54,688 nt of DNA, taken from assembly GCF_005869855.1 (NCBI RefSeq), contig NZ_SZNH01000006.1, forward strand, positions 217,740-272,427, in the 5' to 3' direction. Numbering within the stretch: position 1 is the first letter of the stretch; every line of letters begins with the position of its first letter. This DNA is from Nostoc sp. PA-18-2419. Its GTDB lineage: Bacteria; Cyanobacteriota; Cyanobacteriia; Cyanobacteriales; Nostocaceae. Made by a program: the position numbers and the translations under genes. This document shows, in pieces, positions 16,054 through 44,827 of the stretch. Below the pieces are notes generated by a model. It was given only the letters and a program-made list of their open reading frames with translations. It searched no databases and was not told where the DNA came from.

Positions 16054-16511
16054 TTCAATTTTGGCTGTAATTAATTAAGGATTTTTGAGTCCATAACTAA
16101 TACCAATTGAAAAAAATTCGCGATAAATATATTTTGATACAGAAGTATCACTTTGCAAACCAACATTTAGGCATAACTGATATCGTCCTATGACTCTCTC
16201 TAGGAGAATATTCTGGAATCCCTGTTGCAAAATAGTTTACGCAAGAATCAATATTTTAGGTTTGATATGAGAATTTAATGCCCAAATCTCTAACTTTGCC
16301 TTGGTTTGGTGATTTTGTATTTGATTTTTCTTTGATCAGAGTGATGAAACAGAGATATGATGTCCGGCTGAACGCATAAAAGGACAAGGGAAGGGAGAAA
16401 CAAAAACACAAGTCACAAACGCTCTTGCGAACGCCGGAAAGACTTGTTGTAAGTTCTCCCATGAATCATCTTGTCACTTTGCCCTCTTCAATGACTGCTC
16501 CCTAGTCCCTT
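16054..16511. other. Intergenic region, no convincing gene
   Basis: About 460 bases between two minus-strand genes. A 68-codon frame at 16256-16462 (minus) has a Cys/Ser/Phe-rich translation without family resemblance or a ribosome site and is not called. No RNA gene was recognised. Confidence 0.5.
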
Positions 16512-19500
16512 TTAGACAATTCCTCCATCCTGCTGCGATCGCAATTGTGTTTCTGGCTGAATTGAACCAGCAGGCAAAGCTCTATGTCCATCCAAAGTTC
16601 CATTTGGAGAATCTGGAGGATTTGAGCCTCCGCCTCGCCGACGATAAAATATCGCTCTAGCCAAACTCTTAACCAGAATATAGAGAATTGGCACTAAGAA
16701 CAAACTCAAGAATGTCGAAAGCAGTAGCCCTCCAAACAGTGCTGTCCCCAAAGACCAACGACTACTTGCTCCTGCTCCTTCAGAAATCACCAAGGGTAAA
16801 AATCCTAGGAGCGCTGCAAAGGAAGTCATTAAAATCGGTCGCAAACGTTCTTGTCCAGCTTTCACCGCCGCCCGCGTGTAGCTCATGCCCTGCTCGTGCA
16901 GCTGATTGGCAAATTCCACAACTAAAATCGCGTTCTTGGCGGCTAAACCAATTAATGTCACCAGACCTACCTGGCAATAAATATCATCTACTACTTTGGG
17001 AAATAGGCTACCTGCCATGAAAATATTCGATCGCAACCAAATCGCTGTCATTGCTCCCAAAACTGCCAGAGGAACCGTCAACAAAATAATAATTGGGTCA
17101 ATGTAGCTTTCATACTGAGCTGACAGTACCAAAAATACAATCGCGATCGCTAAAGCAAAAATCAGTCCGGTAGCTCCTCCAGATGTCTTTTCTTGGAGAT
17201 AAGTCCCTGTCCACTCGTAGCCAAATCCCTGAGGTAAAACCTCTGCTGCTAGTTGTTCCATCGCTTTAATCGCCTGTCCAGAACTCGCACCAGGAGCAGG
17301 AGCGCCTTGGACTTTGATTGAGCGATACAAGTTATAATGCGAGATTGTTTTCGGCCCCACAAAGGGAGTAACTTTTACCAAATTACTCAGGGGAATCATC
17401 GCCCCAGTTGATGAGCGAACGTATAACTTGCCAATATCATCAGGATTTGACCGGAAAACTCCATCTGCTTGGACATATACCCGGTACTGTCGCTGTCCTT
17501 GAACAAAGTCATTCACATATTGTGACCCCAAGTAAGATTGCAACGACCCAAAGACATCATTAATCTCCACATTCAGAGCTTTGGCTTGATTGCGGTTTAC
17601 CTGAATTTCAAACTGGGGAGTGTCTGCGGTGAACTGAGTAAAGACTCGTTGGAGAGCAGGGTTTTTATTTGCTGCGGCAATGAACTTTTGAGTGGTATCA
17701 ACCAAAGTTTGAATCGGCGCACTGCCCGTGCGGTCTTGAATGATAAACTCAAAACCACCCGTAGTACTTAACCCTCTAACTGGAGGAGCATTCACAGCGA
17801 TCGCTCTAGCTTCGGTAATTGTAGACAGCTTTTTATTTAGCCCCTGAAGTATGCCATAAACAGATTGAGATTGTTCGGCTCTCTCTTTCCAAGGTTTCAA
17901 GTTAGCAAAGGCAATACCTAAATTAGAAGCGTTGCCATCGAAACCAAAGCCACTAATCATAAAACTAGCTCTCACTTGGGGAAGCGCTGTGATTTCCTTG
18001 ACAACCTGGTTCATTACGGATTCTGTATACTTCAAAGAAACCCCGTCAGGCCCTTGGACAATTACAAAGAAGTAGCCTTGGTCTTCCTCTGGAATAAATC
18101 CGGTAGGCACTGTTTTGTACATGAAAACCGTTGCCAGTAAACCAGCGATAAAAACTCCAATCACAACTGCCTTAATATGGGTAAGATAGCTCACAAACCT
18201 GACATATCGGCGGGTGAACCAGCCAAATCCTCGATTAAACTGTGTAAAAAACCAGCCTAAAGGGCCGCGTGGAGTTTGAGCTGGGCGCATCAGGATCGCT
18301 GCCATACTCGGAGAGAAAGTTAAAGCATTGAAAGTCGAAATTCCAATCGAACAAGCAATGGTTAAGGCAAATTGTTTGTAGACAATACCAGTAGTGCCGG
18401 GGATGAATGCAACCGGAATGAATACCGCCATCAATACCAGTGAAGTAGCAATGATTGCTCCCGTCAACTCTTTCATCGCTTCCACCGCTGCATCAAACGG
18501 CTTCAAGCCCTGTTCCAGTTTGACTGCAACAGCTTCCACGACAATGATTGCATCATCAACGACAATACCGATCGCCAAAACGAAACCAAATAAGGTCAGT
18601 GTATTAATTTGAAATCCTAAAACCAAAAGAGCTGCACATGTCCCAATCAAGGACACGGGTATCGCAACAGTAGGAATGATTGTGGTACGCCAGTCTTGTA
18701 AAAAAACAAAAATTACTAAGACCACTAGCACAATCGCCTCAACCAGGGTGTGTAGCACCTCTTCTAAGGAAATTTCCACAAATGGAGTGGTATCAAATGC
18801 TAGCTCGGCTTTGAGTCCTGGTGGAAAACTCTTTGCTAATGTTGCAATTTGTTCTTCAACAGCATGGGCAACTTGTAAAGCATTACTGCCTGGAAGTTGA
18901 TATATCCCTAAACCCACAGCAGGCTTAGGAGCATTTCCTGGAAGGGTGAATTTGGCATCAGCAAGATAGCTCTCTGCTCCTAGTTCAACTCGACCGACAT
19001 CTTTAACTTTAACTAGGGTATTAGTGTTCGCAGTACCACTTTGACCCACCTTCAACACCATCTCCTCAAATTCAGCCGCATCTTTGAATCGACTGCTTGC
19101 TCGTAAAGCAAATTCAAAGCTTTGATTATCTGGGGCTGGTTCCTTACCAATTGCCCCTGCACCTACCTGAATATTTTGTTCTTGCAGGGCAGTTGTCACA
19201 TCTTGAGGAGTTAGTTGATGTTGAGCAAGCTTGTTGGGATCGAGCCAAAGACGCATTGCATATTTGCGTTCTCCAAAAATAGTGGCTTTTCCTACACCAG
19301 GAATTCGTTTAATCTGATCGAGAATAAATAGGTCAACATAATTACTAATAAAAATGTTGTCATATTCGTTATTTTCTGAGAAGAACCCAAATACGAGAAG
19401 CAAACTACTTGATGCTGTTTCAACAGTCACACCAGTTCGTTTAACAGTATCCGGCAATTGAGGATCGGAGAGAGCTTCTTTATTTTGAACGTTTACTTGA

Positions 19501-19811
19501 GCAATATCACTATTAACATTAGTTGGGAAGGAAACAGTTATATTGCTTGAACCATCATTACCCGTATTAGAAGATATATAAGATACATCTTTAACTCCAT
19601 TAATTTGTCGCTCAATAATGTTAGTAACAGTGCTTTCTGTTGTTTGAGCATCTGCACCAATATTATTGGAGCTAACAGTGATTTGCACCGGGGCCAGATC
19701 TGGTAGCTGAGAAATCGGCAGGATAGGAATACAAATGCTTCCTAGCAGCAAAATGATGAATGTACAGACAGTAGTCAGAACTGGGCGTCTGATAAAAGTG
19801 TTGACAAACAT
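16512..19811 (-). CDS. HAE1-type RND efflux pump inner-membrane subunit
   Basis: 1099 residues, slightly longer than AcrB-type pumps. It starts MFVNTFIRRPVLTTVCTFII, the standard RND opening, and has two large periplasmic loops and about 12 transmembrane helices. The proton-relay aspartate pair is in VLAIGIVVDDAIIVVEAV in the fourth helix. GFIPEEDQGYFFVIVQ opens the second periplasmic loop as in AcrB. The last 45 residues are a polar tail (RRRGGGSNPPDSPNGTLDGH). The pump needs a membrane-fusion protein and a TolC-like channel, and neither is encoded beside it. The divergent LysR gene is a likely regulator. Substrates are probably hydrophobic compounds. Confidence 0.95.
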   Translation of the reverse strand: MFVNTFIRRPVLTTVCTFIILLLGSICIPILPISQLPDLAPVQITVSSNNIGADAQTTESTVTNIIERQINGVKDVSYISSNTGNDGSSNITVSFPTNVNSDIAQVNVQNKEALSDPQLPDTVKRTGVTVETASSSLLLVFGFFSENNEYDNIFISNYVDLFILDQIKRIPGVGKATIFGERKYAMRLWLDPNKLAQHQLTPQDVTTALQEQNIQVGAGAIGKEPAPDNQSFEFALRASSRFKDAAEFEEMVLKVGQSGTANTNTLVKVKDVGRVELGAESYLADAKFTLPGNAPKPAVGLGIYQLPGSNALQVAHAVEEQIATLAKSFPPGLKAELAFDTTPFVEISLEEVLHTLVEAIVLVVLVIFVFLQDWRTTIIPTVAIPVSLIGTCAALLVLGFQINTLTLFGFVLAIGIVVDDAIIVVEAVAVKLEQGLKPFDAAVEAMKELTGAIIATSLVLMAVFIPVAFIPGTTGIVYKQFALTIACSIGISTFNALTFSPSMAAILMRPAQTPRGPLGWFFTQFNRGFGWFTRRYVRFVSYLTHIKAVVIGVFIAGLLATVFMYKTVPTGFIPEEDQGYFFVIVQGPDGVSLKYTESVMNQVVKEITALPQVRASFMISGFGFDGNASNLGIAFANLKPWKERAEQSQSVYGILQGLNKKLSTITEARAIAVNAPPVRGLSTTGGFEFIIQDRTGSAPIQTLVDTTQKFIAAANKNPALQRVFTQFTADTPQFEIQVNRNQAKALNVEINDVFGSLQSYLGSQYVNDFVQGQRQYRVYVQADGVFRSNPDDIGKLYVRSSTGAMIPLSNLVKVTPFVGPKTISHYNLYRSIKVQGAPAPGASSGQAIKAMEQLAAEVLPQGFGYEWTGTYLQEKTSGGATGLIFALAIAIVFLVLSAQYESYIDPIIILLTVPLAVLGAMTAIWLRSNIFMAGSLFPKVVDDIYCQVGLVTLIGLAAKNAILVVEFANQLHEQGMSYTRAAVKAGQERLRPILMTSFAALLGFLPLVISEGAGASSRWSLGTALFGGLLLSTFLSLFLVPILYILVKSLARAIFYRRRGGGSNPPDSPNGTLDGHRALPAGSIQPETQLRSQQDGGIV

Positions 19812-29093: not shown

Positions 29094-32000
29094 CTAATAA
29101 CTATAAAAAACCATAAAATTGTTATTGGTTAGTGACAATCCAGGAGATAATTGTGCAAACTGCACCTGAGTAAACGCACCTGCGCTACCATCCACATCAA
29201 AGAACAATCCACCTGTAGTCGAGTTATATATAAATCGCTGACTACTTGTGGTTGCAGATGCTCCGGTTGTAAACTGACTAGCTTTTAGTACACCTGGTGA
29301 TAAGTCGCTAATAAAACCAGCAATTGATATCTCAATTAGTTCATTAGTGGCGTTAAAGTCATAAATGCGCTCAACGCCTTCACTGAAAGTATTGAAAACA
29401 AAGGTATCAGTACCAGCTCCCCCATAAAGGCTATCATTACCGCTGCCACCATTTATGAAGACATCATTACCATTACCACCTTTGAGGGTATCATTACCGC
29501 TGCCACCTGTGAGGGTATCATTGCCATTATTCCCCACAATTAAGTCATCATAGTAAGAACCTGAAATATTTAATCCTTCGATATTCTTGTAGCTAACTAA
29601 TCTCGTACCAGCCGTAATTTCTCCCTTGTTTGTAGTAGCATTGAATGTCGTTGTGATTCCTGCGGTAGCATTTCCAAAATCGACAGATAATAAATCGTTA
29701 CCTGTCCCCCCATCTATTGTATCATTGCCATCATCGCCTGCATCAAGTGTATCGTTTCCATTACTCCCTACAATTAAGTCATTGTTAACTGTACCTGAGA
29801 TATTTAATCCTTCGATATTCTTGTAGCTAATTAGTCTCGTGCCCTGTTTAATTGAGCCAGTATTAGTAGTAGCATTGAAAGTCGTTGTGATTCCTGTGAT
29901 AGTATTATTGAAATAGATAGTTAAGGAATCGTTACCTGTCCCCCCATCTATTGTGTCATTACCACCATAGCCCGTATCAAGTGTATCGTTGCCATTGCTC
30001 CCTACAATCAAGTCATTGTAAACTGTACCTGAGATATTTAATCCTTCGATATTCTTGTAATTAACTAGTCTCGTGTCCTGTTTAATTGAGCCAATATTAG
30101 TAGTAGCATTGAAAGTCGTTGTAATTCCTTGACTAGTATCGTAGTAATTGAAGTACAATAAATCCTCACCCTTACCCCCATCTATTGTGTCATTGCCACC
30201 ATAGCCCGTAGAAAGCGTATCGTTGCCATTGCTTCCCACAACGTTGTCATTATAGCCTGTACCTGAAATATTTAATCTTTCGATATTTTTGTAGCCGACC
30301 CCAGACATGCCCACTGCGATTGAGCCAATGTTAGTAGTGGCATTGAAAGTCGTTGTAATTCCTGTGGTAGGATTGCTGTAATCGACAGACAACAAATCGT
30401 CACCCTTACCCCCATCTATCGTATCTTTGCCACCACTGCCCACAGAGAGAGTATCGTTGCCATTGCTGCCCACAATGTTGTCATCGTAGGCTGTATCTGA
30501 GATATTTAATCTTTCAATATTCTGATAACTGACTCGATACTTGCCTGCTGTCATTGAGCCAATGTTAGTAGTGGTATTAAATGTTGTTGTGATTCCTCCA
30601 GTAGCATCGCTGTAATCAACTCTCAACAAATCGTCACCTTTACCCCCATCTACCGTTTGAGTCACTAAATAAGAGCGGACAGTATCTGGGGATGAGGTGC
30701 TTAGATACAGAGAATCATTGCCATCGCCACCAGAGAGTAAGTTATTGCCTGTTGAAATCTCAGCACGCAATGTATCGTCACCAGTGCCACCGTTGAGAGT
30801 ATTATTGCCAGAGGAGGGATTGTAATAATCTCCACTACTGGTTCCGGTGACAAAGCCAGAGATGGAAAGATCATCATTGCCATCGCCACCAAAGAGTAAG
30901 TTATTACCTGTTGAAATCCCAGCATTTAAGGTATCATCACCAATGCCACCGTTGAGGGTGTTATTGCCTGAGGAGGAAAAATAATAGTCTACTCTATATC
31001 CATCATAGCCAGAGGTGGAAAGATAATCATTCCCATCCTCTCCAGAGAGTAAGCTATTACTTTCTGGAGACTCAGCGCGTAATGTATCGTCACCAGCACC
31101 ACCATCGAGGGTGTTTTTGCCTGAGGAGCCAATGAAGTTGTATATTGTAGGAAGCTCAGAGGCGTTAAGAACATCATTGCCATCCCCGCCAGAGAGTAGG
31201 TTATTGCCTTTTGAAGCTCGAGCATACAATGTATCGTTACCAGCGCCACCATCGAGAGTGTTCTTGCCTGTTGAAGAGTCAACATTCAAAGTATCGTCAC
31301 CAATACCACCAACAAGGGAGTTATTGCCAGTATCATCAATGAGGGTGTCATTCCCTAAGCCACCAATAAGAGTATCATTGCCTGCACCACCCCGTAAAAG
31401 GTCATCACCACTTTTGCCATCAATTTTATCATTGCCCCCTTGACCATTCACCACATCATCTGAGCTGTCTAAAGCAGTAATGTTGTTGTCTAGGTCATTG
31501 AGGAAAGTTACCGTGTTCTTGATGCCGATATTTGTATCAGTAGAGTCGGCATCAAGAACATTAAAATCATCGGTGATGCTAGTTTCCCCACTAAACAAGA
31601 TATTACCAATGGCTGGTCTTGTACCATCCGCTTTGAGGTTCTCCAAATCTTCTAGTTTGAATTTTTGCAGGATGACTGTAAAACTCAAGTCTGCTAAATT
31701 TACAAAGCTGATTTCCAGATTGTTACCGTTCTGAGTGAGCAGCATATTTCTGGCGGAGTCTTCAAATGTGATAGTATCCACCTCGGCAATGACTGCTGCT
31801 GTTGGATTTGTTCCTTTACCTACCCCACCGAAATCGGTGATTGTATAACTACTTTCAGCCGAGTTATAAGTGTCGTAAACAAACGTATCGTTGCCACCGC
31901 TACCCGTTAAAGTATCCTTACCACGACTAGCTCTGATAGTATCGTTGCCATTGCTCCCTACAATGTTGTCATCATAGCGTGTACCTGAGATATCTAATCG

Positions 32001-33065
32001 TTCAATATTTTTATAATTAATCTGAGATGTGCCTACTTTAATCGAGCCAGTATCAGTAGCATGATTAAAAGTCGAAGTGATTCCCTCAGTTGCATTATCG
32101 GAATCGACGGTTAACAAATCGTCACCTGTCCCTCCGTCTACCGTTTGAGTTGCTAAGGAAGAGGGAGCAATATATGGGACAAACAAACTGAACGTATCAT
32201 TGCCATCCCCTCCATTTAGGATGTTGCTACCCTGAACTCCACGGGTGTAAAAGTAATCATTCCCATCTTGTCCTGAAACCGTATTATTGCCAGTAGAATA
32301 GCTTATATCAAGGTAGTCATCCCCTGTATCCCCTGTGAGAATGTTATTTCCAGAGGAATAGGAAGCATCAAGGGTATCATTGCCCAGACCACCAATGAGA
32401 GTATTATTGCCCGTACCACCCCGCAGCAAATCGTCACCACTTAAGCCATTTATTTTGTCATTGCCCCCCTGACCATTCACCACATCATCTGAGTTGTCTA
32501 AACCTGTAATGTTGTTATTCAGGTCATTGAGGAAGGTGACTGTGTTCTTGATACCAATGCTTGTATCGGTAGAGTTGGCATCCAGGACATCAAAACTATC
32601 AGTGATACTAGTTTCCTCAAACCCATTAAACAAGATATTACCTATGGCTGGTCTTGTACCATCCGCTTTCAGGTTATCAAAGTTTTCTAATTTGAAGTTT
32701 TCCAGGATGATTTTTGTGTTATATCCCCCTTCAAAACTGATTTCTAGATTGCTACCATTTTGCGTGAGTAGCAAATTTCGCGCAGTAAATTCAGAATCCA
32801 AGAATTTGATGGTATCGACTTCCGCAATTACTGCTGCTGTTGGATTTGTTCCTTTACCTACACCACTGAAATCAGTGATTATATCAGTGCCGTCATCTGA
32901 GCCATAAAAAACAAATGTATCTTTGCCACCCCCACCCGTTAAAGTATCGTTGGCATAACCACCTGTGATGATATCATCCCCAGCTTTACCGTTAATTATG
33001 TTGGCGTCGTCGTTAGTGCCGTATAGGGTGTCATTGCCATTGGTTCCAATAGTAGTAAATGTCAT
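29094..33065 (-). CDS. Giant RTX (hemolysin-type calcium-binding repeat) protein 1
   Basis: 1323 residues, very Asp/Gly/Asn-rich. Many GGxGNDxL nonapeptides form calcium-binding beta-rolls. Between them lie two other modules: a roughly 150-residue block (from VGKGTNPTAAVIAEVDTI to about TALDSSDDVVNGQGGNDK), present twice, and a 78-residue block with ITTTFNATTN, YKNIERLNISGT and IVGSNGNDTL, present six times. The C-terminal 100 residues (TFVFNTFSEGVERIYDFNAT to the end) are serralysin-like and probably carry the type I secretion signal. There is no Sec signal, as expected. No enzymatic domain was recognised, so a structural or adhesive extracellular role is likely. AGGAG lies 7 bases upstream of the ATG. 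Confidence 0.9.
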   Translation of the reverse strand: MTFTTIGTNGNDTLYGTNDDANIINGKAGDDIITGGYANDTLTGGGGKDTFVFYGSDDGTDIITDFSGVGKGTNPTAAVIAEVDTIKFLDSEFTARNLLLTQNGSNLEISFEGGYNTKIILENFKLENFDNLKADGTRPAIGNILFNGFEETSITDSFDVLDANSTDTSIGIKNTVTFLNDLNNNITGLDNSDDVVNGQGGNDKINGLSGDDLLRGGTGNNTLIGGLGNDTLDASYSSGNNILTGDTGDDYLDISYSTGNNTVSGQDGNDYFYTRGVQGSNILNGGDGNDTFSLFVPYIAPSSLATQTVDGGTGDDLLTVDSDNATEGITSTFNHATDTGSIKVGTSQINYKNIERLDISGTRYDDNIVGSNGNDTIRASRGKDTLTGSGGNDTFVYDTYNSAESSYTITDFGGVGKGTNPTAAVIAEVDTITFEDSARNMLLTQNGNNLEISFVNLADLSFTVILQKFKLEDLENLKADGTRPAIGNILFSGETSITDDFNVLDADSTDTNIGIKNTVTFLNDLDNNITALDSSDDVVNGQGGNDKIDGKSGDDLLRGGAGNDTLIGGLGNDTLIDDTGNNSLVGGIGDDTLNVDSSTGKNTLDGGAGNDTLYARASKGNNLLSGGDGNDVLNASELPTIYNFIGSSGKNTLDGGAGDDTLRAESPESNSLLSGEDGNDYLSTSGYDGYRVDYYFSSSGNNTLNGGIGDDTLNAGISTGNNLLFGGDGNDDLSISGFVTGTSSGDYYNPSSGNNTLNGGTGDDTLRAEISTGNNLLSGGDGNDSLYLSTSSPDTVRSYLVTQTVDGGKGDDLLRVDYSDATGGITTTFNTTTNIGSMTAGKYRVSYQNIERLNISDTAYDDNIVGSNGNDTLSVGSGGKDTIDGGKGDDLLSVDYSNPTTGITTTFNATTNIGSIAVGMSGVGYKNIERLNISGTGYNDNVVGSNGNDTLSTGYGGNDTIDGGKGEDLLYFNYYDTSQGITTTFNATTNIGSIKQDTRLVNYKNIEGLNISGTVYNDLIVGSNGNDTLDTGYGGNDTIDGGTGNDSLTIYFNNTITGITTTFNATTNTGSIKQGTRLISYKNIEGLNISGTVNNDLIVGSNGNDTLDAGDDGNDTIDGGTGNDLLSVDFGNATAGITTTFNATTNKGEITAGTRLVSYKNIEGLNISGSYYDDLIVGNNGNDTLTGGSGNDTLKGGNGNDVFINGGSGNDSLYGGAGTDTFVFNTFSEGVERIYDFNATNELIEISIAGFISDLSPGVLKASQFTTGASATTSSQRFIYNSTTGGLFFDVDGSAGAFTQVQFAQLSPGLSLTNNNFMVFYSY
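29500..30660 (-). repeat. Five tandem 234-bp units inside RTX gene 1
   Basis: The segment encoding YKNIE/YQNIE recurs exactly 234 bases apart: its ATATT anchor is at 29581, 29815, 30049, 30283 and 30517. Each unit encodes 78 residues. The exact spacing shows recent unequal recombination. A sixth, more diverged unit lies apart near 32000. Confidence 0.85.
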
Positions 33066-33942
33066 TATTTTCTCCTTCTTTAATAGATGTTTGGGAGTTA
33101 TTTTGAGTTTTCAACTTTTCGTGTTGGAGGGCACAAAAATTTGCCGAAAGTTGAGGCTTTCGACATACTTTTATCATTGTTGAAGCTTATAAATTTTTGA
33201 TGAATCTTCTCCTTTTAATTAACTTGCAAGTATTACTTATCCAAGCACTTGGGACTATCTAAATCTTAAAGCCGCCTAAAGTTTGTCAGCGTGTAGATTC
33301 ACAAAAAACTAGTTTCAAGCTAATTTCAATCATCCTTTATCAGTCGCATAGGCAAATATCTGCCATAGACATTGATAAACAAGAGTTGAAAAATCGAGTT
33401 GGAATGCTCCAAATTCAAAACTCATAATTTAGTTGTTTTGTCAATGCGTAAGTCTTATTAGTTAGAAAATAGGGAACACTTGATGGGGCTATAGGCAAAG
33501 GAATCTTTGTCCTTCGCCCTTGGGTATTTGGCTTCAAAAAAGGAAATATCTCAATAACATCATAACTAACTCAAGACAGAATATTTACTTACATGTCTAG
33601 ATTGAGATAAATATCTTTGCATATTCTTGATATTATTTTTTAATAAATATATGCATAACTTATGAACTTGGTGTATGCTTTATCTTTTGAAGTCAAAGAA
33701 TTTGCACAATACCAGTAGAAAATATTCTCTGAATAAATAAAAATAGTTGCTAGTTGAACGCTGCAATGTCTAAGGCAGGTAGACATCAGAAGAAAAATAA
33801 ATTATATCTAAGTCAAAATCCCTATTAGTTACCATTGATTACAAACGCACAGATAAATCTAATGCGAGGTGTTTAGAATAGTACCTCGCATTTTCAAGGT
33901 TTATTATCTTACTTGTTACCTGGGCTGAAACCCTAATTACCT
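33066..33942. repeat. Inter-RTX spacer, copy A of a duplicated approximately 870-bp segment
   Basis: 877 bases with no gene. From about 33191 onward it aligns collinearly with 37221-37961 (shared stretches include ATTAACTTGCAAGTATTACT, AACTAGTTTCAAGCTAATTT and GGCAAATATCTGCCATAGAC). It should hold the promoter of RTX 1 and the terminator of RTX 2. Confidence 0.8.
33861..33892. terminator. Hairpin after RTX gene 2
   Basis: AATGCGAGGT (33861-33870) pairs perfectly with ACCTCGCATT (33883-33892) around GTTTAGAATAGT. The duplicate at 37880-37911 has the same loop and a stem kept by two G-T wobbles on the plus strand. Confidence 0.6.
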
Positions 33943-36900
33943 TCAAACAATTACAAAATTGTTGTTAGTTAATGACAAGCCAGTAGATAATTGTGCAAAC
34001 TGTATCTGAGTAAACGCACCTGCACTACCATCAGAGTCGAAGAACAATGCACCTGTAGTCGAGTTATAAATCAACCTTTGAGTACTGGTGGTTGCAGATG
34101 CACCGATTGTAAATTCACTTGTCTTAAGTACACCTGCTGATAAACCGCCACCAAAACCAGTAGCCGATACCTGAATCACTTCATTAGTGGCGTTAAAGTC
34201 ATAAAGTCTATCAACCCCCTCGTTAAAACTACTGAAAACAAAGGTATCAGTACCACCTCCTCCATAAAGGCTATCACTACCTTTGCCACCTGTAAGGGTA
34301 TCATTGCCATTTCCACCTTTGAGGGTGTTCTTACCAAAACCACCAGAAGCTGTGAGAATATCATTGCCATCGCCACCATCTAGGAGGTTATTGCCTGATG
34401 AATTGCTGACATTCAAGTAATCACCACCAGTGCCACCGCTAAGGGTGTTATTGCCTGAGACAGCATAAACTCCGTACAAACTGTATAAAGAATCAGGGTC
34501 GTAAGCAAACAGAGAATCGTTGCCATCACCACCAGAGAGCAGGTTATTACCAGTTGAAAAGTTAGTAACTAAATTATCGTTCCCAGCGCCACCATTGAGG
34601 GTGTTATTGCCAGAAGCATAAGTTACGTTAGCATCATCTCGGTATATAAAGACGCTTCCAGAGGCACTAAGAGAATCATTGCCATCGCCACCATAGAGCA
34701 GGTTATTGTCTGATGAATAGTTATCGCCATTTAAGGTATCGTCACCTGCACCACCGTTAAGGGTATCATTGCCACTACCAGCTCCGTTGAGGAAATCATT
34801 GCCATTACTCCCGACAATCAGGTCATCGTTGGAGGAACCTGAAATATTTAATTGTTCAATATTTTTGTAACTAACCCGATTCGTGCCTGCTGTAATTGAA
34901 CCAGTGTTAGTAGTAGCATTGAATGTTGAAGTGATTCCCCCAGGACCATTGTAGTAACCATAAATGTTCAACAAATCGTCACCTTTGCCACCATCTATCG
35001 TATCATTGCCACCATAGCCTCCACTTATCGTATCGTTGCCATTACTCCCCACAATGTAGTCATTATAGTCGTCTGTACTTGAGATATTTAATCGTTCGAT
35101 ATTCTTGTAGCTAACCCGATTCGTGCCTAGTGTGATTGAGCCAGTGTTAGTAGTAGCATTGAAAGTCGAAGTAATTCTCCCGGTGTAGTAACTAATGGTC
35201 AATAAATCATCACCTTTGCCACCATCTATCGTATCATTGCCACCATAGCCCCCACTTATCGTATCGTTGCCATTGCTCCCCACAATGTAGTCATTGTATT
35301 CTGTACTTGAGGAGATATTTAATCGTTCGATATTCTTATAGCTAACCCGATTCATGCCTACCGCAATAGATCCAGTGTTAGTAGCAGCATTAAAAGTCGA
35401 AGTGATTCCCCCAGTACTATTGTAGTAACCATCAATGCTCAACAAATCGTCACCTGTTCCCCCATCTACTGTTTGTTGAGCCACTAAGGAAGAGGAGGAA
35501 AACCCCAGGTATAACGAATCATTGCCATTCCCCCCATTGAGAACATTATTGCCAACCGTAACCTCACCATTGTTTGTAACAGAGAGAGAATCATTGCCAT
35601 CTCCTCCATTAAGTAGGTTATTACCGATTGAATCGTAAGCACTCAAGGAATCGTCGCCAGTACCACCGTTGAGGGTGTTATTGCCTGAGGCAATGCTGCC
35701 ATTGAAATTGTCGCCAGAGGCACTCAAGGCATCGTCGCCATCCCCTCCATTGAGCAGATTATTACCTTTTGAAGAGTTAGCACTCAACTCATCGTTCCCA
35801 GCATCACCATTGAGGGTGTTATTGCCTGTTGAAGAGTCAGCATTTAAATTATCGTTATCAACACCACCGTTAAGGATATTATCGCTTGTTGAATACTCAA
35901 CACTCAAGTAATCGTAACCAACACCCCCAAAAATCGTATCATTGCCATAACTAGAATCAATGCCACTACTGCCCCCAAAAAGATTATCGTTGCCATTGCT
36001 CCCTACAATCAAGTCACCAAAGGTTGTACCTCGAATCTCTAATTCTTCGATATTCTTGTAGTTAACCTGATATGTACCAGCCGTAATTGAGCCAGTATTA
36101 GTAGCAGGATTGAATGTCGTTGTGATTGCCTCGGGAGCATTGAAACAATATATAGTTAGGTAATCGTCTCCTGTCCCTCCATCTAGCGTTTGAGTTGCTA
36201 AGGAAGAGGGGGCTGTATCTGGGGCGGACAAAACAAACCGATCATTGCCATCCCCTCCATTTAGGATGTTGCTACCTTGTACTTTATCAGCCTGAAAGTA
36301 ATCATCCCCATCTTGTCCTGAAACATTATTGTTACCAGTAGAGTAGCTAATATCAAGGTAGTCATCCCCTGCGTCCCCCGTGAGAACGTTATTTCCAGAA
36401 GAATAGAAAGCCTCTAAGCTATCATTGCCTACACCACCAATGAGAGTATTATTGCCTGAACCACCCCTTAAAACGTCGTCGCCACTTAAGCCATCAATTT
36501 TGTCATTGCCCCCCTGACCATTTATCACATCATCTGAGTTGTCTAAAGCAGTAATGTTGTTGTCTAAGTCATTGAAAAAGGTCACTGTATTTTTAATGCC
36601 AATACTTGTATCAGTAGAGTTGGCATCTAGAACATTAAAGCTATCAGTGATGTTAGTTTCTTCATTAAACAGGATATTACCAATGGCTGGTCTTGTACCA
36701 TTCGCTTTCAGGTTATCTAAGTCTTCTAATTTGAAGTTTTTTAGAATGACTTTGGTATAATTGTTTTCTTCAAAGGTAATTTCCAAATTATTACCATTTT
36801 GGGTGAGTAGCATACTTCGGGCTGTTAAGCCGTAGCCAAGGAATTTAATGGTATCGACTTCGGCAATTACTGCTGCTGTTGGATTTGTGTCTTTACCGAC

Positions 36901-37095
36901 GCCACCAAAATCAGTAATCGTATCAGTGCCGTCATCCAAGTTATAAACAAATGTATCTTTGCCACCACCACCTGTTAAAGTATCGTCGCCATAACCAGCT
37001 GTGATGATATCATTGCCAGCTTTACCATTAATTGTATCGGCACTATCAGTACCCAGTAGGGTGTCATTTGCATTGGTTCCAATGATATTTGCCAT
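33943..37095 (-). CDS. Giant RTX protein 2, tandem paralogue of RTX 1
   Basis: 1050 residues with the same plan as RTX 1: N-terminal RTX block, one copy of the 150-residue VGKDTNPTAAVIAEVDTI module, many GGDGNDSL repeats, four copies of the YKNIE/LNISG module, and the conserved C-terminal region (TFVFSSFNEGVDRLYDFNAT to the end). It has one fewer large module and two fewer 78-residue modules, so the pair differs by repeat number. AGGA lies upstream of the ATG at 37095. Expected to leave the cell by type I secretion; no secretion genes lie nearby. Its upstream and downstream spacers are duplicates of one another. Confidence 0.9.
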   Translation of the reverse strand: MANIIGTNANDTLLGTDSADTINGKAGNDIITAGYGDDTLTGGGGKDTFVYNLDDGTDTITDFGGVGKDTNPTAAVIAEVDTIKFLGYGLTARSMLLTQNGNNLEITFEENNYTKVILKNFKLEDLDNLKANGTRPAIGNILFNEETNITDSFNVLDANSTDTSIGIKNTVTFFNDLDNNITALDNSDDVINGQGGNDKIDGLSGDDVLRGGSGNNTLIGGVGNDSLEAFYSSGNNVLTGDAGDDYLDISYSTGNNNVSGQDGDDYFQADKVQGSNILNGGDGNDRFVLSAPDTAPSSLATQTLDGGTGDDYLTIYCFNAPEAITTTFNPATNTGSITAGTYQVNYKNIEELEIRGTTFGDLIVGSNGNDNLFGGSSGIDSSYGNDTIFGGVGYDYLSVEYSTSDNILNGGVDNDNLNADSSTGNNTLNGDAGNDELSANSSKGNNLLNGGDGDDALSASGDNFNGSIASGNNTLNGGTGDDSLSAYDSIGNNLLNGGDGNDSLSVTNNGEVTVGNNVLNGGNGNDSLYLGFSSSSLVAQQTVDGGTGDDLLSIDGYYNSTGGITSTFNAATNTGSIAVGMNRVSYKNIERLNISSSTEYNDYIVGSNGNDTISGGYGGNDTIDGGKGDDLLTISYYTGRITSTFNATTNTGSITLGTNRVSYKNIERLNISSTDDYNDYIVGSNGNDTISGGYGGNDTIDGGKGDDLLNIYGYYNGPGGITSTFNATTNTGSITAGTNRVSYKNIEQLNISGSSNDDLIVGSNGNDFLNGAGSGNDTLNGGAGDDTLNGDNYSSDNNLLYGGDGNDSLSASGSVFIYRDDANVTYASGNNTLNGGAGNDNLVTNFSTGNNLLSGGDGNDSLFAYDPDSLYSLYGVYAVSGNNTLSGGTGGDYLNVSNSSGNNLLDGGDGNDILTASGGFGKNTLKGGNGNDTLTGGKGSDSLYGGGGTDTFVFSSFNEGVDRLYDFNATNEVIQVSATGFGGGLSAGVLKTSEFTIGASATTSTQRLIYNSTTGALFFDSDGSAGAFTQIQFAQLSTGLSLTNNNFVIV

Positions 37096-42079: not shown

Positions 42080-43165
42080 TCAATCTAACGGGTAATATAT
42101 ATCTTCAGAACTAGGATTAAGATAAGGATGCTGTAAATCTATTAAGTGCTGCTTAAAGTGTTGGTTAATCACCCTTATCCGTTCTTCCATTGCATTCTTA
42201 CCTTTTTGCCAAGCTTCCAATAAAGCATTAGCGACGATTTGACAACGGTTCATCCCAAAACTTTCTTGTGCGGCAAATTTTTGAGTTGGTTCTTCAGCTA
42301 AACCTAATCCTGGTGCTAAAAATTTGGTAAACAAGGGAATTTCGGGCTGGAAATAAAATTGATTTTCTAGATAAATTGTTTGAAGGATGGTGCGGATTGC
42401 TGGATAGTCGTCGAGTTCAAAGTAGAGTACCCCCGAATCGTAGCGTTCGTATGCACAGGGATTGTGGAGAACCTGAAAGCTAAAGGGAATGGAAGCTGCA
42501 TTTAGATGTAAAGTTAGGCTATTCATTAGAGCGATCGCACCAGATGGTGTCAAGTTAAAGTAGATTCGCCCTGCTCCTAAATTACTGTCTGGATTAGTTT
42601 GCTGTTGTTGTCTGACATTACTAACTGCCATGTAACAACCGTTTTGCAGGCGATTTTTGGGCATCCAGATTGCTACCATGTCACCTACTTTCGTCGATTT
42701 CTTACTGGATTCTAAATGACAGTCTGGCTCAATATAAAGTGTTAAACCACCTTTTGTCACAGCCATACTACCATCAGGTTCTTGCCGCATTACCTGCCAT
42801 TCTGAATCAAAGTAACCTACGCCATGATTACTTTTGTGCAGTTGTTTGTAGAAGTCCCAATCAATCTCGGAAATCGAACTATCTTCTAAATTATGTTTTG
42901 CTCTGTGATTAGTAGTATCAGTGTTGACTGCTAAAGTAGTTTGCAAGGAGCCATTGTAATAGATTCCATAGAGGAAATTTCGCAATAGCAAAGCCAAATA
43001 TTTTTGTTGTAAATCTGCCGGAGTTTGCTGAAATCTGTCGGCTACTTTAGTCGGCAGAGCAAATGGTTGATAATTGGGATGGTAAATACAAAAATTTGAC
43101 TCTATTTGGATATTCCTAGCAATGTCCAACAGAGAAGTCAGCGGTTGATTGGCAGAATATAACAT
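42080..43165 (-). CDS. HopA1-family protein, possible phosphoresidue lyase of a RiPP pathway
   Basis: 361 residues from the ATG at 43165 (a TTG four codons earlier is possible). The protein matches the HopA1 family known from Pseudomonas type III effectors and from many cyanobacteria: conserved stretches include LLRNFLYGIYYNG, GVGYFDSEWQVMRQEPDGSM, GRIYFNLTPSGAIALMNSLT, and PCAYERYDSGVLYFELDDY. In class V lanthipeptides (LxmY) and thioviridamide-type pathways (TvaD), HopA1-like proteins act with an APH-like kinase to dehydrate Ser/Thr; the kinase phosphorylates and the HopA1-like protein eliminates. An APH-like kinase gene lies 424 bases upstream on the same strand. The lyase role here is inferred. 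The C-terminal QNPY-like end is unremarkable. Confidence 0.82.
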   Translation of the reverse strand: MLYSANQPLTSLLDIARNIQIESNFCIYHPNYQPFALPTKVADRFQQTPADLQQKYLALLLRNFLYGIYYNGSLQTTLAVNTDTTNHRAKHNLEDSSISEIDWDFYKQLHKSNHGVGYFDSEWQVMRQEPDGSMAVTKGGLTLYIEPDCHLESSKKSTKVGDMVAIWMPKNRLQNGCYMAVSNVRQQQQTNPDSNLGAGRIYFNLTPSGAIALMNSLTLHLNAASIPFSFQVLHNPCAYERYDSGVLYFELDDYPAIRTILQTIYLENQFYFQPEIPLFTKFLAPGLGLAEEPTQKFAAQESFGMNRCQIVANALLEAWQKGKNAMEERIRVINQHFKQHLIDLQHPYLNPSSEDIYYPLD

Positions 43166-43588
43166 TAATCGATTCAAAACTCAAACAGAGAAAATTCAAA
43201 ATCATCAAACAGGACTCAGAATTGGCGAATTCAGAATCCAGAATACTCCACCCATAAAAAGATGAAATAATAACCCGAAGAACTTTGAGACTTGTTTCGC
43301 CCATAAAAGTATGAGGTTTTAATCTATACTGTTGAGCTACTCGCTTTACCTTTGGCTAAGTTCTGACGACTGACATTTTTGTTCTTCTTTATAAAACTAG
43401 TATGAGGTCAAATCCTCTTAATTTATGATAGGGTAAATAATATGCAGAACAATTTAAAATTTAGTAAAAATTCACCTCCGAAGATTCCGAAGCCAGAATT
43501 GATAACAAGTCTAATCTGAAAACTTCTCTAGATTTTTTAACTATTCTCACTCCGGAATTTTTAATTATTCTTGTTCTGCTCCCTGCCA
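43166..43588. other. Spacer between kinase and HopA1 genes
   Basis: About 420 bases. A plus-strand 25-codon frame at 43442-43519 (MQNNLKFSKNSPPKIPKPEL...) and a minus-strand 62-codon, Ser/Cys-rich frame at 43116-43304 are the only candidates for a precursor peptide; neither is convincing. The minus-strand frame overlaps the HopA1 start. Confidence 0.4.
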
Positions 43589-44827
43589 TTAACAACCACG
43601 GAGTCGAGTTTTTTCGTAATAAATGCGAAGTAACTGCTGCTCTTTTTGAGGCTGAGGAAGTCTATGGATTTTAGCCACAGGGTTGACAATTTCTGATTCG
43701 GAAATCCCGAAAATAGTCAACACAGCTTGCTCTGGCATAGTCAGTAAACTTTTAGCTACTTGCAGCATACAGATATCAGCATTGTTAAAGTTTTTTTGGC
43801 AAGTAATCATATCCTGAATTTGATGAATCAGTGCTAGTCCGGCAAATTGAATAACTCGTAAAATAAAGTCACTACGATATTCTAAAATCATCGGGAAAGC
43901 ACAGAGATAAGACCTAATCAGGGCAATAATTGAAGGTTGTAAAATCTCTAACGGTATCAACGCTAGATGTAGAGATTCTTCTAACTCAATAGTATGGTCT
44001 ACTACTAGGCTCTTGAGCCAAATTTCTAAATAGCTGGCGAGTAAAGTTCCTAAATCAAAAGCTGGATCTCCCCAAGTGCAAGCTTCCCAATCAATTAGTC
44101 GCACTAGGCAATTATCTAATTGCTGCCAGCGAGAATGAACTAAGATGTTGTTCAATTTTAGGTCGTTGTGAGTTAAGCAGCAAGGATTCCAGTCATATGC
44201 CAAATCTGCGATCGCCGATGACAAACTTTCGTATTGTTGATAAAGAACGTAGAATTTCAACGCATCGCTGGGAACAGTACCAAAAATCTCTGGACTAATT
44301 GACCCTAGCCCTTGTGCTGGATTGTAAAAGCCGTAGCGAAACTCTCCTTGGGGAGCAGTTGCCATAAAATCCTTATATTCTCGGCGTTGGAAGGTTGCAC
44401 GATGCAGTCCTGCTAAAGTTGTGCCGATCGCATAGGCAATTTCTGGTGGAAAAATCTCATTATTGTGGTATAATGTCCGAAGCTCAAGATAGTCACTCAG
44501 GTAATTGCGGACGAGGATAGAATTTTCTTCGTCAAAATGTACTACTAATGGTGCGATCGCCGAGACATTGCCTAGAACTGGAAACTGCTGGAGCAATTGG
44601 TGAAACAGCCACTCTTTAAATAATTCATGGGGCAACCCTTCACTGTTAATGATACGTTCTTGTTTGAGGAGCAGTTGGCGATTATCAGCTAGAGTTACAA
44701 GTAAATTGAAATTTTTGCTGCTACTTCTTGGCAAGTCAGATTCATCCGATCTGCCATGTCCTGAGTTACACAGACCTACATCTTGCAGATACTGGATAAC
44801 ATTGTGAGAAGACAGTGATAATACCAT
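43589..44827 (-). CDS. Aminoglycoside-phosphotransferase-like kinase (APH fold)
   Basis: 412 residues. The N-lobe ATP-binding lysine is in RQLLLKQERI (about K55). The catalytic loop is CLTHNDLKLNNILV (H220, D222, N227) and the metal-binding motif is LIDWEACTWGDPAFDLG (D246), so an active phosphotransferase is expected. APH-fold enzymes phosphorylate aminoglycosides, choline, homoserine and other small molecules; LxmK and TvaC, partners of HopA1-like proteins, phosphorylate peptide Ser/Thr. The neighbouring HopA1 gene favours that last role. Alone, antibiotic resistance cannot be ruled out but is less likely. AGTAGGA lies upstream of the ATG. Confidence 0.83.
   Translation of the reverse strand: MVLSLSSHNVIQYLQDVGLCNSGHGRSDESDLPRSSSKNFNLLVTLADNRQLLLKQERIINSEGLPHELFKEWLFHQLLQQFPVLGNVSAIAPLVVHFDEENSILVRNYLSDYLELRTLYHNNEIFPPEIAYAIGTTLAGLHRATFQRREYKDFMATAPQGEFRYGFYNPAQGLGSISPEIFGTVPSDALKFYVLYQQYESLSSAIADLAYDWNPCCLTHNDLKLNNILVHSRWQQLDNCLVRLIDWEACTWGDPAFDLGTLLASYLEIWLKSLVVDHTIELEESLHLALIPLEILQPSIIALIRSYLCAFPMILEYRSDFILRVIQFAGLALIHQIQDMITCQKNFNNADICMLQVAKSLLTMPEQAVLTIFGISESEIVNPVAKIHRLPQPQKEQQLLRIYYEKTRLRGC

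What the first reader, a model, noticed from the sequence alone, without database searches (positions are those of the whole stretch)
42080..44827. HopA1-like protein and APH-like kinase pair: candidate peptide Ser/Thr dehydration system in a cyanobacterium
Seen: two same-strand genes, one HopA1-like and one APH-fold kinase with a complete catalytic loop (HNDLKLNN) and metal motif (DWE). Established: in class V lanthipeptides (LxmK/LxmY) and thioviridamide-type pathways (TvaC/TvaD) this pairing phosphorylates and then eliminates Ser/Thr to make dehydroamino acids. Inference: the pair here could act on a ribosomal peptide or another substrate. No cyclase, decarboxylase or precursor gene is adjacent, so it may work in trans or on a small molecule, which would be new.
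Basis: partly seen in the sequence, partly recalled or inferred. Interest (0 to 1): 0.8.

Follow-up and report, generated by a model that had tools for sequence, protein, structure and literature searches.

The report
Orphan kinase with lysine-less lyase partner
A pair of cyanobacterial genes descended from a peptide-antibiotic-making enzyme has been kept across most of a bacterial family although one half has lost its key chemical residue and no peptide substrate is in sight, so it has probably been taken over for another job.

Summary
In detail: an APH-fold kinase (43589-44827, -) lies directly upstream of a HopA1-family gene (42080-43177, -). But the pair does not look like a working dehydratase. 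HopA1 rows from 109 loci split into two clades. R-type (66) keep the catalytic Lys of CaoY/LxmY in 66 of 66, and 59 of 66 loci have RiPP leader peptides; such clusters are already known (Eyles 2021, Family 1A). The window is W-type (43): Lys lost in 42 of 43 (Gln in the window), leaders at 0 of 110 loci searched. W kinases carry a new C-terminal tail ending T-x-L-R-G-C; 7 of 43 have lost their metal-binding Asp. Both genes stay under purifying selection (median dN/dS 0.14). By profile score the W kinase is in 212 of 217 genomes of the family and in 0 of 343 other cyanobacterial genomes. A related locus outside the family (L241) keeps the Lys, lacks the tail and has a precursor-like ORF beside it. 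Best reading: a domesticated former RiPP dehydratase whose lyase half is a pseudo-enzyme. What it binds or phosphorylates is unknown; all functional steps are inferred.

The parts
43589..44827 (-). W-type APH-fold kinase (412 aa), LanK-like; ATG start
   Evidence: matches the W kinase profile over 1-412, 827.7 bits (profile A2 was built with this sequence in it)
44147..44170 (-). kinase catalytic loop HNDLKLNN (residues 220-227), intact in the window
44084..44092 (-). metal-binding DWE (residues 246-248), intact in the window; Asp replaced by Asn in 7 of 43 W-type kinases
43592..43675 (-). W-specific C-terminal tail of the kinase, ending YYEKTRLRGC
   Evidence: 105 of 107 W-type kinases end in Cys against 0 of 63 R-type (the 107 joins two sets that share genomes); per-position conservation
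42080..43177 (-). W-type HopA1-family protein (365 aa from TTG; in-frame ATG at codon 5), LanY-like, proposed pseudo-lyase
42473..42475 (-). codon of Gln235, the position of the essential Lys219 of CaoY
   Evidence: alignment to 9dk1_B and to 66 R-type proteins; mutant data in PMC9486802 (passages)
42566..42568 (-). Arg204 = CaoY Arg187, kept
42443..42445 (-). Arg245 = CaoY Arg229, kept
42422..42424 (-). Tyr252 = CaoY Tyr236, kept in the window; replaced in 11 of 43 W-type

Best explanation
The pair is the single-copy, vertically kept (W-type) paralogue of the class V-type dehydratases found in cyanobacterial Family 1A RiPP clusters. It came from such an enzyme: the ancestor had a catalytic Lys and, judging by the related locus L241, a precursor gene. 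On the branch to the window's family it lost the precursor and the Lys and gained a C-terminal kinase tail. Today the kinase and the HopA1 protein most likely still form a heterodimer. The HopA1 half no longer eliminates phosphate and serves as scaffold, stabiliser or peptide-binding partner. The kinase half binds nucleotide and in most lineages may still phosphorylate a peptide or protein; the T-x-L-R-G-C tail is a conserved docking or regulatory element. The output would be a phosphorylated or merely bound partner, not a dehydroamino acid. Shown by sequence: kinship, loss of Lys, tail, orphan status, selection. Inferred: order of events, heterodimer, no lyase activity, scaffold role, kinase activity. 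Unknown: partner and physiological role.
For: W and R form two sides of one branch of the HopA1 tree (109 rows, SH-aLRT 99) and of a 33-row concatenated tree built without the Lys column and without the tail (bootstrap/aLRT 100/100). Lys219 position: R Lys 66 of 66; W Gln 40, Glu 2, Lys 1 of 43; none of the 120 closest database proteins has Lys (Gln 104, Glu 12, His 3, Tyr 1). K219A of CaoY abolishes elimination and leaves phosphopeptide (PMC9486802, passages). Spacing R-K-R-Y in LxmY, counted by eye (32, 10, 7), equals that of the CaoY residue numbers, so the mapping is sound. Leader profile at E <= 1e-3: 59 of 66 R loci, 0 of 110 W loci. At least one C39/HlyD/PPIase relative at >= 40% identity: 50 of 66 R, 0 of 43 W. 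L241 groups with W (100/100), keeps Lys, has no tail, and has a leader-bearing ORF divergently upstream (E 1.9e-6). Tail. dN/dS medians 0.144 (kinase) and 0.138 (HopA1); 0.140 and 0.101 in the Asp246Asn group. One W per genome in 43 of 43 genomes. W kinase by score in 212 of 217 family genomes and in none of 343 others. LxmK alone is soluble only with a fused tag, and co-expression with LxmY stabilises both (PMC12141560 section 10), a precedent for a structural role of the lyase half.
Against: No activity or binding was measured. Gln might be rescued by another residue; the HopA1 model (mean pLDDT 60.6) is too weak to judge. One W lineage (G017: L151, same contig as named L050) has Lys at the site, though its kinase has Asn246. 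Arg204, Arg245 and Tyr252 remain in the window, as if a phosphate pocket were still in use. The kinase half is not fully degenerate: Lys55 and His220 are kept in 43 of 43 and Asp222 in 42 of 43, so kinase chemistry may be the conserved function. In G179 the W HopA1 gene is gone while the kinase persists, so the HopA1 half is not always needed. In a HopA1-only tree L241 is left unresolved; its place with W comes from the two proteins together and a midpoint root. Orphan status was tested only within the fetched stretches (mostly about 8-9 kb on each side).
Confidence: 0.62

Rival explanations
1. Working dehydratase in trans: the pair still phosphorylates and eliminates Ser/Thr of RiPP precursors encoded elsewhere in the genome, with a substitute general base.
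For: G000 has 17 leader-profile hits, 15 of them at its three R loci; kinase motifs and three of four lyase residues are intact in the window.
Against: Essential Lys lost in 42 of 43 W proteins; W is kept in genomes with no leader hit at E <= 0.01 (G018, G020, G099) or only weak ones (G003, G156, G197; E 0.0015-0.009); the three R loci of G000 have their own pairs.
Confidence: 0.1
2. Kinase only (a sub-reading of the best explanation): the pair phosphorylates a peptide, protein or small molecule and the phosphate is meant to stay; the HopA1 half only stabilises or presents the substrate.
For: Beta3 Lys 43 of 43, catalytic His 43 of 43, catalytic Asp 42 of 43 in W kinases; a K219A lyase leaves phosphopeptide (PMC9486802).
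Against: Metal-binding Asp is Asn in 7 of 43 W kinases, needing at least 4 changes on the tree, and Gln in L245; the loop Lys is lost in 15 of 43; dN/dS is unchanged in the Asn group. So phosphotransfer can hardly be the conserved function in every lineage.
Confidence: 0.3
3. Pseudo-enzyme pair (the other sub-reading): a non-catalytic peptide-binding regulator, or a kinase-fold cyclase like RosX/LanX, acting through the conserved tail.
For: Erosion of both active sites under purifying selection. Kinase-fold RosX lacks catalytic, Mg- and ATP-binding residues yet is a cyclase (PMC12291118, passages). In L244 a pair with both halves degenerate (kinase D222N, D246N; HopA1 K to Tyr) lies beside an intact HopA1 gene and leader peptides.
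Against: Most W kinases, the window's too, keep the complete kinase motif; no peptide substrate is in sight.
Confidence: 0.3
4. Small-molecule kinase of the aminoglycoside/choline type with a HopA1 neighbour by chance.
For: APH and choline-kinase Pfam models both exceed their cut-offs; 24 of 64 named W loci lie near a thioesterase gene on the same strand.
Against: Best NCBIfam model is LxmK; HopA1 and kinase stay together in 43 of 43 W loci while the flanks change; grouped with RiPP-cluster kinases.
Confidence: 0.06

Closest known systems
Class V lanthipeptide dehydratase LanK/LanY (CaoK/CaoY, LxmK/LxmY; PDB 9dk1-9dk3)
   Different: Essential lyase Lys is Gln; no leader peptide nearby and no decarboxylase among the window ORFs scanned; extra kinase tail; LxmK model score far below cut-off
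Cyanobacterial HopA1/phosphotransferase RiPP clusters, 'Family 1A' of Eyles 2021 (PMC8153245, passages)
   Same: Same gene pair; W is a separate clade beside these enzymes
   Different: Family 1A loci encode double-Gly precursors; W loci have none found, and no C39/HlyD/PPIase relatives at >= 40% identity
Cyanobacterial bacteriocin clusters groups I/II of Wang 2011 (PMC3140520, passages)
   Same: The genome's R-type loci have the kinds of gene described there: C39 ABC exporter with nucleotide-binding domain, HlyD, SurA-like PPIase
   Different: The window pair has none of these; the words HopA1, kinase and phosphotransferase do not occur in that paper's main text
RosX/LanX kinase-fold cyclases (PMC12291118, passages)
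   Same: Kinase fold in the same enzyme setting; some W members also lose kinase residues
   Different: RosX lacks the catalytic, Mg- and ATP-binding residues named there and works beside a LanK/LanY pair and a decarboxylase; the window kinase keeps its motifs
OspF/SpvC phosphothreonine lyases (3bo6) and P. syringae HopA1 (4rsw)
   Different: Encoded in a pair with a kinase; no catalytic Lys

Membership tests
Class V LanK/LanY dehydratase | APH-fold kinase encoded next to a HopA1-family protein | tested here: met
Class V LanK/LanY dehydratase | Kinase reaches the curated LxmK cut-off (NF038156, 315 bits) | tested here: not met
   71.4 bits; three R-type kinases, 62.5-94.4 bits, also fail, so this says 'distant', not 'non-functional'
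Class V LanK/LanY dehydratase | Lyase general-base Lys (CaoY K219) | tested here: not met
   Gln235 in the window; 42 of 43 W lack Lys; 66 of 66 R have it
Class V LanK/LanY dehydratase | Lyase Arg187, Arg229, Tyr236 | tested here: met
   R204, R245, Y252 in the window; His57 of CaoY was not mapped
Class V LanK/LanY dehydratase | Kinase catalytic Asp, loop and metal-binding Asp | tested here: met
   window D222, N227, D246, E248
Class V LanK/LanY dehydratase | Dehydration of Ser/Thr on a substrate peptide | not testable with these tools
   needs in vitro reconstitution
Cyanobacterial Family 1A RiPP cluster | Leader-bearing double-Gly precursor genes nearby | tested here: not met
   0 of 110 W loci including the window; 59 of 66 R loci as positive control
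Cyanobacterial Family 1A RiPP cluster | C39 ABC exporter, HlyD, PPIase in the locus | tested here: not met
   0 of 43 W against 50 of 66 R with at least one at >= 40% identity; some W loci have ABC-type hits near 28-30% identity, see Tried and rejected
RosX/LanX kinase-fold cyclase | Loss of catalytic, Mg- and ATP-binding residues | tested here: not met
   window kinase keeps K55, D222, D246
Aminoglycoside or choline kinase | Closest curated model is a small-molecule kinase | tested here: not met
   best NCBIfam model is LxmK; Pfam APH and choline kinase models are exceeded but general
OspF/SpvC phosphothreonine lyase | Lys104-His106-Lys136 catalytic set (as described in PMC9486802) | tested here: not met
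   the Lys136 equivalent is Gln; the Lys104 equivalent is Arg as in CaoY; His106 not examined

The most novel reading that the evidence does not exclude
The kinase carries its own substrate. Its C-terminal hexapeptide T-x-L-R-G-C is a Thr and a C-terminal Cys with four residues between, the spacing of the Thr8/Cys13 pair that closes the AviMeCys ring of thiostreptamide S4 (PMC8153245, passages); the RosA1 20-25 hexapeptide that forms the AviMeCys ring of rosin A1 has the same length (PMC12291118, passages). After the free precursor gene was lost, a core-like peptide would have become part of the enzyme, so the pair would phosphorylate or cyclise its own tail: a RiPP-type modification turned into a protein-borne regulatory or structural device, comparable to borosins (recalled), where the core is fused to the modifying enzyme.
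Probability: 0.06. Interest if true: 0.92.

Novelty: new variant of a known kind. Interest (0 to 1): 0.62.

Why it matters
RiPP-cluster enzymes are commonly thought of as quickly gained and lost (general knowledge). Here one such pair has become a single-copy feature of a cyanobacterial family (kinase by score in 212 of 217 genomes) while shedding part of its chemistry, and a related locus outside the family still shows the presumable working state. That makes the domestication of a RiPP enzyme testable step by step, warns against annotating every HopA1/kinase pair as a lanthipeptide dehydratase, and gives a defined deletion target in Nostoc and Anabaena (both among the named W loci).

Tried and rejected
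In-trans action on Family 1A precursors as the conserved role: thought unlikely from W-only genomes. I sent 6 of the 7 W-only genomes noticed; G006, a draft of 440 contigs, was left out. Three gave no hit; G003, G156 and G197 gave 1, 2 and 1 weak hits. G197 has a second HopA1 match that is not in the listed part and was not looked at. Further genomes with a single HopA1 match were not tested.

Link to nitrogen fixation: nifH in 12 chosen genomes; G085, which has no W-type kinase, has a full-length nifH, so loss of W does not follow loss of nifH there.

Structures: the kinase model has mean pLDDT 43 and was not used. The HopA1 model is weak and used for fold only. A complex could not be modelled. 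Rescue by the W-specific Lys325/Lys327 could not be tested.

First leader search by motif was too narrow: it missed the L241 precursor. It gave 51 of 66 R and 0 of 42 W; replaced by a profile.

Low-identity exporter hits near W: ABC-type ORFs at 28-29% identity to the C39 queries in L153, L156, L159, L160 and L209 and 30% in L245, and one C39-query hit in named locus L014; taken as unrelated ABC transporters by their short length (about 254 aa where seen), not proven.

Tail: the degenerate DNA pattern for T-x-L-R-G-C-stop gave 8 matches in 4 genomes, 4 of them the W kinase and 4 reading TGG, not a stop; the reversed control gave 11. Tail length is the same in all 77 W kinases with the LQVAK landmark (30 of 107 lack it), but two divergent ones, L245 and L246, differ by a few residues (by eye). 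L248, not in the 63 R kinases, also ends in Cys, as VLLC. Resemblance of RLRGC to the ubiquitin end RLRGG is recalled and taken as chance.

Conserved neighbours: no ORF cluster other than the pair was found in more than 31 of 64 named loci.

Literature. Judged from listings, no paper on a Lys-less or orphan cyanobacterial HopA1/kinase pair.

Rows dropped: L234 (fused, over length) and L239 (fragment) are not in the 109 HopA1 rows; 3 R rows have no kinase row, and in 2 the kinase lies more than 500 bases off. The 66 R rows exclude two non-W proteins without the Lys: L234 and one of L244. L243 keeps Lys but has Ser for Arg187 and Cys for Tyr236. The unnamed (43) and named (64) W sets share genomes, so the 107 and 110 totals count some twice.
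Full report
WHAT IS THERE. The downstream one is a HopA1-family protein (PF17914 E 1e-62), the upstream one an APH-fold kinase (PF01636 E 3.9e-14) whose best NCBIfam model is the class V lanthipeptide kinase LxmK (E 7e-20, 71 bits, cut-off 315). The gap between them is 411 bases in the window; the median over 43 W loci is 98. The window carries no leader-type ORF, and 30 scanned window ORFs give no flavoprotein decarboxylase, LanC or LanM family.

THE GENOME HOLDS FOUR PAIRS. The whole genome has four HopA1 genes, each with a kinase upstream. The three others lie in RiPP-type clusters: arrays of short ORFs with a common leader (consensus over 30 precursors MAxIKISxLxPAGSELFxDSESFLNEL ... GG), a cNMP-binding/C39/ABC exporter (Pfam shown for the L074 copy), HlyD-like and PpiC-type PPIase genes. 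They fit the cyanobacterial Family 1A of Eyles et al. 2021: 570 peptides in 183 clusters, with 96% of HopA1 proteins encoded alongside a phosphotransferase (PMC8153245, passages). The exporter set resembles groups I/II of Wang et al. 2011 (PMC3140520, passages). That part is known.

TWO CLADES. From searches of 39 and 194 genomes (both include G000 and they overlap) I fetched HopA1 loci and kept 109 HopA1 rows; a fused over-length protein and a fragment were dropped, and two places in G082, one in G185 and a weak one in G101 were not fetched. Rows fall into W (43, with the window, from 43 different genomes) and R (66), assigned by best match to the four copies of G000 and borne out by one branch of the tree (SH-aLRT 99). 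At the position of the essential Lys219 of CaoY, R has Lys in 66 of 66; W has Gln 40, Glu 2, Lys 1. Arg187: R 66 of 66, W 40 of 43. Arg229: 66 and 43. Tyr236: R 66 of 66, W 32 of 43. In CaoY, K219A loses elimination and R187A nearly so, while phosphorylation goes on (PMC9486802, passages). The mapping rests on the alignment to LxmY (9dk1_B), where the residue spacing 32-10-7, counted by eye, is that of the CaoY numbers. In 64 named W loci the position reads Gln 56, His 5, Lys 1, Glu 1, Tyr 1; in the 120 closest database proteins Gln 104, Glu 12, His 3, Tyr 1.

THE KINASE. R kinases keep catalytic Asp, loop Lys and DWE Asp in 63 of 63. W kinases keep the beta3 Lys and catalytic His in 43 of 43 and the catalytic Asp in 42, but the loop Lys only in 28 and the DWE Asp only in 36 (7 Asn). 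On a kinase tree the Asp/Asn character needs at least 4 changes and the loop Lys 7. The genes are not decaying: dN/dS medians are 0.144 (kinase, 1192 pairs) and 0.138 (HopA1, 1329 pairs), and 0.140 and 0.101 (28 pairs each) in the group with Asn. The window kinase has intact motifs.

A NEW TAIL. All 77 W kinases with the LQVAK landmark (of 107) run 58 residues from it to the end; the R ones with it run 26-39. The divergent L245 and L246 differ by a few residues. The end ...YYEKTRLRGC is the best kept part of the tail: in the unnamed set Thr, Leu, Arg (position -3) and Cys are 43 of 43; 105 of 107 W end in Cys, 0 of 63 R do. In 4 genomes searched, the W kinase is the only match to T-x-L-R-G-C followed by a true stop.

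ORPHAN STATUS. With a leader profile, 59 of 66 R loci and 0 of 110 W loci have a leader ORF at E <= 1e-3. At >= 40% identity, at least one of C39, HlyD and PPIase relatives is at 50 of 66 R loci and 0 of 43 W loci; weaker ABC-type hits near W are listed under Tried and rejected. The flanks of W differ between genera. In 24 of 64 named loci a thioesterase gene lies downstream on the same strand (median 855 bases between midpoints; Pfam 4HBT shown for the L240 copy), with genes around that look like phylloquinone genes (recalled, not tested). Six genomes with W and no R pair were searched for precursors: none in three, weak hits in three.

DISTRIBUTION. With the W kinase profile, 212 of 217 genomes of the window's family match at E <= 1e-166, a line I drew in the gap between the groups; the tail was not checked in each. 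The exceptions are G085 (R-type only), G360 (1.2e-143), G361, G364 and G291 (54% complete). Among 386 genomes across the phylum, 42 of 43 family rows have a W kinase of >= 587 bits, and none of the 343 others; the best match outside the family is 526 bits. HopA1 itself matches in 216 of 217 family genomes, but W and R were not told apart there genome by genome. In G179 the W kinase is intact and its HopA1 partner is missing, the thioesterase following directly.

A LIKELY ANCESTRAL STATE. That 526-bit match, L241 in a genome of another family of the same order, groups with W in a 33-row tree of both proteins built without the Lys column and the tail (100/100, midpoint root); a HopA1-only tree leaves it unresolved. 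It has the Lys, intact kinase motifs, no RLRGC tail, and a divergent 107-aa ORF with a leader and GG (E 1.9e-6). So a plausible order of events is a small RiPP locus, then loss of precursor and Lys and gain of the tail on the branch to W. In the same genome another pair (L244) has lost residues in both halves (kinase D222N, D246N; HopA1 Arg187 to Ser, Lys219 to Tyr, Tyr236 to Gln) and lies beside an intact HopA1 gene and leader ORFs. A fused kinase-HopA1 protein (L234, 819 aa; HopA1 by Pfam, APH just under its cut-off) reads Gly where the Lys should be (by eye). Lys loss thus seems to have happened more than once.

MECHANISM. LxmK alone is soluble only with a fused tag, co-expression with LxmY stabilises both, and the two form a cavity for the peptide (PMC12141560 section 10). 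In the rosin system the RosK-RosY complex binds the leader better than its parts, and a third kinase-fold protein, RosX, lacks kinase residues and acts as cyclase (PMC12291118, passages). Against this background the likeliest reading is a heterodimer in which the HopA1 half is a pseudo-lyase scaffold and the kinase half binds nucleotide and a partner, with phosphotransfer possible in most but not all lineages. I put 0.62 on 'domesticated former dehydratase without elimination', and split kinase-only and fully non-catalytic about evenly.

LIMITS. No experiment; weak structure models; no complex model; no named role; literature limited to open PMC text, mostly listings and passages.

Noticed in passing
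L073:9636-11491 (such genes at 16 of 66 R loci): An aldo/keto reductase and a second PpiC-type PPIase follow HopA1 in L073; relatives at >= 40% identity are at 16 of 66 R loci each. The reductase could act on dehydroamino acids, which I do not know from other RiPP systems (inference).
   Followed up: partly
L234:9451-11910 (G047): Natural fusion of kinase and HopA1 in one 819-aa protein; by eye the Lys position reads Gly.
   Followed up: partly
L244:8083-12475 (G543): A pair with both active sites degenerate beside an intact HopA1 gene, leader ORFs and an ORF that looks like a luciferase-type oxidoreductase (recalled likeness); candidate non-catalytic partner in a RiPP cluster.
   Followed up: partly
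L240:4504-6281 (G179): W kinase kept, W HopA1 gene absent, next gene is a 4HBT thioesterase.
   Followed up: yes
L074:4458-6219 and L184:12666-14535: Tandem arrays of five and six near-identical precursor genes whose cores as listed have no Cys, so products could be dehydrated without lanthionine rings.
   Followed up: no
G179:C34, G118:C22, G231:C92: nifH is split in two pieces about 6-12 kb apart around codons 136-148, which looks like an insertion element.
   Followed up: no
window 14206-19811: IucA/IucC siderophore-type synthetase next to an AcrB-type RND transporter gene.
   Followed up: no
window 29094-37095: Two large RTX-repeat (HemolysinCabind) proteins in tandem.
   Followed up: no
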